This document shows positions 32,387 to 33,174 of a stretch of DNA of 53,243 bases, piece by piece. Every line of letters starts with the position of its first letter. Position 1 is the first letter of the stretch. Both the position numbers and the translations under genes were made by a program. The DNA is taken from positions 1 through 53,243 of the forward strand of contig JAIXUI010000014.1 of NCBI GenBank assembly GCA_027484125.1, given 5' to 3'. The notes under the pieces were generated by a model that was given only the letters and a program-made list of their open reading frames with translations, had not been told where the DNA came from and made no database searches. This stretch comes from Bacteroidota bacterium (GTDB taxonomy: Bacteria > Bacteroidota > Bacteroidia > UBA7662 > JAIXUI01).

Positions 32387-32405
32387 CAAAATCTCCTAAA
32401 ACGCA

Positions 32406-32431
32406 AATCCCCGACCTCACGGTCAGGGATT
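32406..32431 (-). terminator. hairpin terminator downstream of the small RNA
   Basis: On the minus strand AATCCC-T-GACC-GTGA-GGTC-G-GGGATT pairs fully if one T-G wobble is allowed, and is followed by TGCGTTTTAGG. On the plus strand the same position is a C-A mismatch, which favours the minus-strand transcript as the intended user. Confidence 0.6.
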
Positions 32432-32468
32432 CACTCAGGCAATCAAATCAGAACCACAAATCGGGTTG

Positions 32469-32590
32469 CTGTAGGAGAAGGATTCGAACCTTCTGAATAA
32501 CAACCGATGCGGGGTAACCTGTAACAATTGCGTCGGTGGTTTATTCTTCCCGGTGGATCCGGCCTGCCGGAACCTCCTACAGAGTTTCAA
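32469..32590 (-). ncRNA. tRNA-like small RNA, no anticodon
   Basis: The minus-strand transcript folds into a cloverleaf: an 8-bp acceptor-like stem (CTGTAGGA with TCCTACAG), a D-like hairpin UCCGG-CAGG-CCGGA with a 4-nt loop, a long hairpin replacing the anticodon arm (GAATAA with TTATTC, then ACCGACGC with GCATCGGU), and a T arm GAAGG-TTCGAAT-CCTTC with a canonical T-loop. No anticodon loop or encoded CCA is visible; the 3' side after the stem is CAA. The 8+5 stem and 4-nt D loop recall tRNA-Sec. A perfect promoter is upstream, and a hairpin terminator ends it about 40 bases beyond the stem. I cannot match it to SRP RNA, tmRNA or 6S RNA. Confidence 0.7.
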
Positions 32591-32595
32591 CACGA

Positions 32596-32627
32596 CAAAA
32601 GTAATCACACCACCCATTTCATACAAA
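32596..32627 (-). promoter_or_regulatory. promoter of the tRNA-like RNA (TTTG-N20-TAnnTTTG)
   Basis: On the minus strand TTTG (32627-32624) and TACTTTTG (32603-32596) are separated by 20 bases, the exact Bacteroidota consensus of -33 and -7 elements. A start point is expected a few bases before the CTGTAGGA stem. Confidence 0.75.
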
Positions 32628-32647
32628 TCTCTTAATAATTTAAGAGA
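32628..32647. promoter_or_regulatory. palindrome TCTCTTAA-TAAT-TTAAGAGA
   Basis: A perfect inverted repeat with 8-base arms that abuts the -33 box of the small-RNA promoter and lies 69 bases before the Lrp gene start. Lrp/AsnC proteins often bind such sites in their own upstream region, so it is a likely operator acting on one or both divergent genes. Confidence 0.55.
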
Positions 32648-32715: not shown

Positions 32716-33174
32716 ATGAGTGTTTTAGAAATTGACAATGTAGATCGTCAGATTATCTCCATTTTGACCGCAGATGCCAAAATGCCCTACTCCAGAGTAG
32801 CGGAAAAAGTCTATGTATCAGACGGCACCGTCCATGTTAGGATGAAAAAGATGGAGCAAATGGGCATAATCAAAGGCGCAACATTAATTATTGACCACCG
32901 CAAGCTCGGCTACGACTTAACCGCCTTTGTAGGCATTTACTTAGAAAAAGCTTCGGTTTATAAAGATGTCATCAGCCGATTAGAAGACATTCCGGAAGTA
33001 GTGGAAGCCTCTTACACCACCGGTAACTACTCCATTTTTGCAAAAATCATCTGCCAGAATACGGATCATCTTTTGAACGTATTGAACCACAAAGTGCAAA
33101 TGATTGAAGGAATCCGCAGAACTGAGACCTTCATCTCATTGGAAACAGCCATTCGCCGACAAGTTGCGCTCTAA
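32716..33174 (+). CDS. Lrp/AsnC family transcription regulator
   Basis: A 152-residue regulator: N-terminal helix-turn-helix (MPYSRVAEKVYVSDGTVHVRMKKMEQMGII), then the RAM ligand-binding domain (FVGIYLEKASVYKDVISRLE and ASYTTGNYSIFAKIIC). Such proteins form octamers or dimers that respond to amino acids. It is transcribed away from the tRNA-like RNA, with a palindrome between them, which suggests that it controls that RNA. The ligand is unknown. Confidence 0.92.
   Translation: MSVLEIDNVDRQIISILTADAKMPYSRVAEKVYVSDGTVHVRMKKMEQMGIIKGATLIIDHRKLGYDLTAFVGIYLEKASVYKDVISRLEDIPEVVEASYTTGNYSIFAKIICQNTDHLLNVLNHKVQMIEGIRRTETFISLETAIRRQVAL

What the first reader, a model, noticed from the sequence alone, without database searches (positions are those of the whole stretch)
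32406..32647. tRNA-like small RNA gene with its own promoter, terminator and an adjacent Lrp palindrome
The minus strand has a perfect TTTG-N20-TAnnTTTG promoter, a cloverleaf-like RNA with a canonical TTCGAAT T-loop and an 8+5 acceptor/T stem, and a terminator hairpin, but the anticodon arm is replaced by a long hairpin. A perfect 20-bp palindrome touches the -33 box, and the divergent gene is an Lrp/AsnC regulator. This could be a regulatory tRNA mimic controlled by amino acid state. The structural match is seen directly; the function is inference.
Basis: partly seen in the sequence, partly recalled or inferred. Interest (0 to 1): 0.85.

Follow-up and report, generated by a model that had tools for sequence, protein, structure and literature searches.

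The report
tRNA-like carrier RNA for making asparagine
Next to an asparagine-type regulator gene sits a worn member of a previously undescribed family of tRNA-like RNAs, which many Bacteroidota bacteria probably use as a dedicated carrier on which aspartate is turned into asparagine, instead of the usual asparagine-making enzyme.

Summary
The minus-strand RNA at 32469-32582 is real and belongs to an undescribed tRNA-like RNA family. I collected about 200 copies, almost all in Bacteroidota. ARAGORN and Rfam do not recognise them.

The canonical member is a cloverleaf with strong covariation, a giant variable arm and its own promoter, usually divergent from an AsnC-type regulator (77 of 101 loci). 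It combines the AspRS determinants (G73, G34, U35, C36, C38) with U1-A72, the pair GatCAB recognises. Its anticodon loop looks unfit for decoding.

In relatives lacking the RNA, an asparagine synthetase can occupy the slot beside AsnC. Dedicated synthetases occur in 1 of 40 RNA+ genomes against 10 of 17 AsnC+ RNA- genomes. Among genomes with GlnRS and AsnRS, gatB is kept in 25/25 with the RNA and 0/7 without.

Best explanation: a dedicated, non-decoding carrier RNA on which AspRS and GatCAB make asparagine, under AsnC control. This is inferred, not shown biochemically. The window's own copy has lost its anticodon arm and its genome has AsnB, so it is a relic or repurposed. The '8-bp acceptor' and 'perfect palindrome' are not confirmed.

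The parts
32469..32582 (-). tRNA-like RNA body (114 nt), divergent member of the family
   Evidence: Model R1 hit, 30.3 bits, E 6.3e-7; fold z -3.17
32575..32581 (-). acceptor stem 5' strand UGUAGGA (U1..A7); pairs with 32470-32476
   Evidence: sequence; U1-A72 in 194/195 relatives and 22/22 copies not selected by the search pattern
32470..32476 (-). acceptor stem 3' strand UCCUACA (A72 at 32470); discriminator G73 at 32469
32477..32493 (-). T arm GAAGG-UUCGAAU-CCUUC
32555..32574 (-). hairpin GGUUCCGG-CAGG-CCGGAUCC standing where relatives have D arm plus anticodon arm; contains no GUC
32495..32546 (-). long hairpin in the place of the variable arm; keeps the AAUAAACC motif
32596..32627 (-). 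promoter TTTG-N20-TAcTTTTG (Bacteroidota -33/-7 type)
   Evidence: same promoter found upstream of 69 of 195 relatives, 0.24 expected in shuffles
32628..32647 (.). inverted repeat TCTCTTAA-TAAT-TTAAGAGA touching the -33 box; possible AsnC site (inference)
32398..32432 (-). intrinsic terminator GAATCCCTGACC-GTGA-GGTCGGGGATTTGCGTTTT
32716..33174 (+). divergent AsnC-type transcription regulator (152 aa)
   Evidence: NCBIfam AsnC NF008384 177.5 bits (curated cut-off 227, so below it); Pfam AsnC_trans_reg and HTH

Best explanation
The family to which the window RNA belongs is a dedicated, non-decoding carrier RNA for RNA-dependent asparagine synthesis. Proposed steps: (1) AsnC senses low asparagine and switches on the divergent RNA promoter (inferred from the arrangement). 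(2) The tRNA-like RNA, after end processing and CCA addition, is charged with aspartate by the ordinary AspRS, because it carries G73, G34, U35, C36 and C38 (inferred from identity elements). (3) GatCAB amidates the bound aspartate to asparagine, because the RNA has U1-A72 instead of the G1-C72 of true tRNA-Asp (inferred from identity elements and from strict co-retention of gatB). (4) The Asn-RNA cannot decode (U33 not conserved, pyrimidine mostly at 37, giant variable arm), so asparagine is released by an unknown step and supplies AsnRS and metabolism. The RNA thus stands in for AsnA, AsnB or archaeal-type asparagine synthetase. The window's own copy is a derived member that lost the D and anticodon arms in a genome that has AsnB. 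It probably no longer does this job and is either decaying or repurposed.
For: New structured RNA: 17 pairs with compensatory changes, 97% of cells paired against about 52% when slid, 0/500 shuffles; repeated on 48 distinct model-found copies; RNAalifold recovers the cloverleaf unaided. Identity elements: U35 and C36 in 195/195, C38 in 194/195, G34 in 185/195, none of these fixed by the search pattern; U1-A72 and G73 in 22/22 copies outside the pattern. AspRS determinants, and U1-A72 as the GatCAB determinant blocked in tRNA-Asp by G1-C72, are from PMC9976931. Control: in RNA+ genome G054, true tRNA-Asp is G1-C72 while tRNA-Asn and tRNA-Gln are U1-A72. AsnC divergent in 77/101 loci, never in another position or orientation. 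In RNA- relatives the same AsnC slot holds AsnB (G117, G267, G290) or archaeal-type asparagine synthetase (G188, G233). Dedicated synthetase in 1/40 RNA+ against 10/17 AsnC+ RNA- genomes, Fisher p 4e-6. AsnRS in 68/68. gatB in 40/40 RNA+. Among GlnRS+ genomes, gatB kept in 25/25 RNA+ and 0/7 RNA-, p 3e-7; by family 8 against 4, p 0.002. Own promoter. Window genome has AsnB.
Against: No transcript, charging or amidation data exist. The release step is unknown. 37 of 40 RNA+ genomes still have long AsnB-like proteins above the TIGR01536 cut-off, so they may make asparagine otherwise; only G021, G255 and G301 lack every candidate. One RNA+ genome (G203) has AsnA. Seven AsnC+ RNA- genomes have none of the three dedicated enzymes. 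G10 (an Asp determinant in bacteria) is not conserved, and G1-C72, important for bacterial AspRS, is absent. The genomes are related, so the p-values are optimistic. In some Cytophagales (notably Cyclobacteriaceae and Pontibacter) and some Saprospiria the RNA is not next to AsnC.
Confidence: 0.66

Rival explanations
1. Regulatory RNA: the tRNA-like RNA reports Asp/Asn charging or titrates AspRS, GatCAB or AsnC, and so controls amino acid genes rather than making asparagine.
For: AsnC neighbour and divergent promoter; tRNA-like pseudo-tRNAs with regulatory roles are known (B. cereus tRNAOther, PMC3399842).
Against: A regulator need not keep both the AspRS set and U1-A72, nor track gatB so strictly in GlnRS+ genomes; tandem copies (2-4 in 42 of 115 loci) suit a bulk substrate better.
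Confidence: 0.15
2. Donor tRNA for a non-ribosomal acceptor: Asp- or Asn-RNA feeds a transferase that modifies a lipid, cell wall or peptide, as non-proteinogenic tRNA-Gly does in staphylococci (own knowledge).
For: Non-decoding tRNA-like RNA with conserved charging elements.
Against: No transferase gene is conserved next to it; AsnC is the only widespread neighbour. It trades places with asparagine synthetases, which a donor role does not predict.
Confidence: 0.09
3. An unusual but decoding tRNA (extra tRNA-Asp) missed by gene finders.
For: GUC at the anticodon position, G73, intact T and acceptor arms.
Against: A normal tRNA-Asp is present; U33 only 152/195, position 37 never A and mostly U; variable region up to about 100 nt or more; ARAGORN and Rfam tRNA do not call it.
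Confidence: 0.04
4. For the window copy only: a repurposed, still selected small RNA rather than a decaying relic.
For: Promoter, terminator and 12-bp acceptor/T stack are intact; fold z -3.2.
Against: Anticodon arm and AspRS anticodon determinants are gone and the genome has AsnB; G006 shows the RNA decaying beside a broken AsnC gene. No close relatives were available to measure selection.
Confidence: 0.4

Closest known systems
tRNA-dependent asparagine synthesis (ND-AspRS + GatCAB on tRNA-Asn; Deinococcus, Thermus, Bdellovibrio)
   Same: AspRS charging followed by GatCAB amidation, guided by U1-A72, in organisms that also have AsnRS and often no Asn synthetase (PMC4206432)
   Different: Carrier is a separate non-decoding RNA with an Asp (GUC) anticodon, so no non-discriminating AspRS is needed; it is linked to AsnC
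AsnC-asnA divergent pair of E. coli (own knowledge)
   Same: AsnC-type regulator divergent from an asparagine-making gene
   Different: The regulated gene is an RNA, not a protein; here the regulator is below NCBI's AsnC cut-off
B. cereus tRNAOther (pseudo-tRNA)
   Same: tRNA-like RNA not used in translation
   Different: No sequence relation shown; described as an element of a larger regulatory RNA (PMC3399842)
tRNA-Sec / allo-tRNAs (8/4, 9/3, 8/5 structures with long variable arm)
   Same: Class II-like, odd anticodon use, long variable arm
   Different: 7/5 acceptor/T stack; Asp plus GatCAB determinants; loop unfit for decoding; not found by tRNA finders
Staphylococcal non-proteinogenic tRNA-Gly (own knowledge)
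   Same: A tRNA dedicated to a non-translational pathway
   Different: Ordinary cloverleaf, used for cell wall bridges; different amino acid and enzymes

Membership tests
This new RNA family (window copy) | 7-bp acceptor with U1-A72, G73, and T arm GRAGG-UUCGANY-CCUYC | tested here: met
This new RNA family (window copy) | 3-bp D arm and 5-bp anticodon arm with loop NNGUCNC | tested here: not met
   arms absent; no GUC in the 114 nt
This new RNA family (window copy) | divergent AsnC gene and -33/-7 promoter | tested here: met
Decoding tRNA (canonical relatives) | recognised by tRNA gene finder / Rfam RF00005 | tested here: not met
   positive control
Decoding tRNA (canonical relatives) | U33 and purine at 37 | tested here: not met
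   U33 152/195; position 37 U160 C18 G17 A0
tRNA-Asp | G73, G34, U35, C36, C38 | tested here: met
   determinants from PMC9976931
tRNA-Asp | G1-C72 and G10 | tested here: not met
   U1-A72 194/195, position 10 varies
GatCAB substrate | U1-A72 first pair | tested here: met
   rule from PMC9976931 and PMC4206432
GatCAB substrate | amidation of the Asp-charged RNA | not testable with these tools
   needs enzymes in vitro
RNA-dependent asparagine synthesis | gatB co-occurs with the RNA when GlnRS and AsnRS make it otherwise unneeded | tested here: met
   25/25 against 0/7
RNA-dependent asparagine synthesis | absence of any other asparagine synthetase in RNA+ genomes | tested here: inconclusive
   E. 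coli-type AsnB 0/40, AsnA 1/40, archaeal type 0/40, but long AsnB-like proteins above cut-off in 37/40
AsnC regulator | NCBIfam AsnC score above curated cut-off | tested here: not met
   177.5 bits against 227; still the best family
tRNA-Sec / allo-tRNA | 13-bp or 8/4, 9/3 acceptor/T stack | tested here: not met
   7+5; -1:73 pair in only 165/195
tmRNA | tmRNA gene with tag | tested here: not met
   ARAGORN tRNA/tmRNA search empty

The most novel reading that the evidence does not exclude
Many Bacteroidota make asparagine on a dedicated non-decoding tRNA-like RNA: AspRS charges it with Asp, GatCAB converts it to Asn, the amino acid is released, and AsnC controls RNA transcription. This would be an RNA cofactor that replaces a metabolic enzyme.
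Probability: 0.6. Interest if true: 0.97.

Novelty: categorically new. Interest (0 to 1): 0.92.

Why it matters
PMC4206432 notes that some bacteria, including Bacteroidetes, have AsnRS, GlnRS and GatCAB but no asparagine synthetase, and proposes synthesis on tRNA-Asn by a relaxed AspRS. A dedicated carrier RNA would answer that question for Bacteroidota without misreading codons. It would also be a present-day case of an RNA used as a carrier for making a free amino acid, and it explains why GatCAB is kept or lost. It is directly testable with standard tRNA biochemistry.

Tried and rejected
Known RNA family: rejected. No Rfam hit at gathering in the window or in 15 relatives, and nothing but a weak plastid 3'-UTR match and other chance matches at relaxed thresholds.

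8-bp acceptor like tRNA-Sec: rejected, because the extra pair is not kept.

Pairing of the GUC loop with the GAYAAA motif of the variable arm: L015 suggested covariation, but L146, L011 and others break it (read).

TatD-like neighbour as the deacylase: rejected as a conserved partner, found only in the window.

Hidden canonical RNA upstream of AsnC in RNA- genomes: not found. G006 gave only a decayed copy; the G004 locus included in the same scan as a positive control gave the expected intact copy.

Literature searches for an earlier description found none; the library has few subscription papers and no preprint collection, so prior description cannot be excluded.

Full report
Observation. The minus strand at 32469-32582 encodes a 114-nt RNA with a 7-bp acceptor stem, a T arm with loop UUCGAAU, a TTTG-N20-TAcTTTTG promoter and a terminator. 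ARAGORN and Rfam find nothing.

Relatives. A 26-bp identity in two other genomes led to RNAs that ARAGORN also misses and that also lie divergent to an Lrp/AsnC gene. A pattern search hit 36 of 295 class members, with no hits of the reversed control pattern. A scan of named genomes gave 120 stretches, in Chitinophagales, Sphingobacteriales, Cytophagales, Saprospirales, some Flavobacteriales and Ignavibacteria. 195 distinct copies were parsed.

Structure. A 26-sequence alignment supports a cloverleaf plus a large variable arm: 30 pairs, 97.2% of cells paired, 17 pairs with double changes, 0/500 shuffles, slid controls near 52-59%. A model-found set of 48 distinct copies repeats it, and RNAalifold finds it unaided. 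The anticodon-position loop is (U/C)NGUC(U/G/C)C: U35 and C36 in 195/195, C38 in 194/195, G34 in 185/195, but U33 only 152/195 and position 37 never A. In a covariance search of 295 class genomes, family copies in about 49 genomes score 75 bits or more and are clearly separated from hits of about 80-90 nt at 67 bits or less. I read the latter as ordinary class II tRNAs; this was not checked one by one.

Identity logic. A review lists G73, G34, U35, C36 and C38 as the strong aspartate determinants, states that U1-A72 confers amidation by GatCAB, and that G1-C72 with U20a prevents it in tRNA-Asp (PMC9976931). The RNAs combine the Asp set with U1-A72. In copies that the search pattern did not select, U1-A72 and G73 are 22/22. 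As a control I scanned 2.4 Mb of RNA+ genome G054: ordinary tRNA-Asp is G1-C72, while tRNA-Asn and tRNA-Gln are U1-A72. One tRNA-Leu call also shows U-A, but its ends look out of register.

Genomic logic. Of 101 named loci with enough flank, 77 have the AsnC gene divergent and upstream, and no AsnC homologue lies in any other position or orientation; it is the only widely conserved neighbour. In relatives with AsnC but no RNA, the divergent gene can be AsnB (G117, G267, G290) or archaeal-type asparagine synthetase (G188, G233). Over 68 genomes, E. coli-type AsnB, AsnA or archaeal-type synthetase occurs in 1 of 40 RNA+ genomes (G203, AsnA) and in 10 of 17 AsnC+ RNA- genomes (p 4e-6). AsnRS is in all 68, so free asparagine or another route is needed. 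gatB is in all 40 RNA+ genomes. In genomes that also have GlnRS, where GatCAB is not needed for Gln-tRNA, gatB is kept in 25/25 with the RNA and 0/7 without. Within one family (f42), six genomes have RNA and gatB without AsnB, and three have AsnB without RNA or gatB. Three large RNA+ genomes (G021, G255, G301) have no asparagine synthetase candidate above cut-off at all.

Expression. 69 of 195 upstream regions hold TTTG-N18-22-TAnnTTTG against 0.24 expected, with spacer mostly 20. A boxA-like GTTCTT lies close upstream in 54 of 194 against 2 expected. Tandem copies are common: 42 of 115 loci have 2-4. Transcription itself is not shown here.

Window copy. It matches the family model at E 6e-7 only through acceptor, T arm and parts of the variable arm. 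Alignment to G002 and G004 shows that the anticodon-arm region is missing and no GUC remains. The window genome has E. coli-type AsnB elsewhere. In G006, same order, the RNA is decayed next to an AsnC reading frame with five stops. So the window copy is best read as a relic or a repurposed RNA in a lineage that switched to AsnB.

What is shown and what is inferred. Shown: a new conserved, structured, promoter-bearing tRNA-like RNA family; its linkage to AsnC; its combined Asp and GatCAB identity elements; its anticorrelation with dedicated asparagine synthetases; its coupling to gatB. Inferred: charging, amidation, asparagine release, and control by AsnC. Main weakness: long AsnB-like proteins remain in 37 of 40 RNA+ genomes, and no experiment has been done.

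Known context. tRNA-dependent asparagine synthesis on tRNA-Asn is known, and 18 genera including Bacteroidetes were noted to have AsnRS, GlnRS and GatCAB but no asparagine synthetase (PMC4206432). No earlier description of this RNA was found in the searchable library. The RNA fails the tests for a decoding tRNA and for tRNA-Asp, so I do not file it as either; it works like the carrier in tRNA-dependent asparagine synthesis. I rate it categorically new because no described RNA family serves only as a non-decoding carrier for making a free amino acid; if the mechanism proves wrong it would still be a new tRNA-like RNA family.

Noticed in passing
L183-L185 (G161, G268, G059), the ~460 nt upstream of the AsnC gene: In RNA- AsnB+ genomes of one family the AsnC slot holds another short element with a terminator; AAAATAACATAGGTTTATAATTGGTTAG is shared by two of them and in part by the third, possibly a different small RNA.
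   Followed up: no
L193 (G181) and L191 (G077), upstream of AsnC: Odd tRNA-like stretches beside AsnC in genomes with AsnB or AsnA; perhaps other degenerate copies.
   Followed up: partly
L201 (G006:C24:4100-5600): RNA with broken pairs and lost GUC next to an AsnC frame with five stops, preceded by a tandem ATTATAAAAAAT repeat; co-decay of the pair.
   Followed up: partly
L032-L034, L036, L118 and other Sphingobacteriaceae copies: A U-U mismatch in the middle of the anticodon stem, present in 50 of 195 copies.
   Followed up: partly
Chitinophagaceae loci such as L132: A gene resembling trmB (tRNA m7G methyltransferase) lies just downstream of the RNA in 13 of 115 loci; the name is from the sequence, not a family search.
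   Followed up: no
Variable arm of canonical copies, e.g. L026:1501-1652: Conserved GAYAAA/CUAA internal loop and, in Chitinophagales and some others, an extra GGGTTGACCAC subdomain; role unknown.
   Followed up: no
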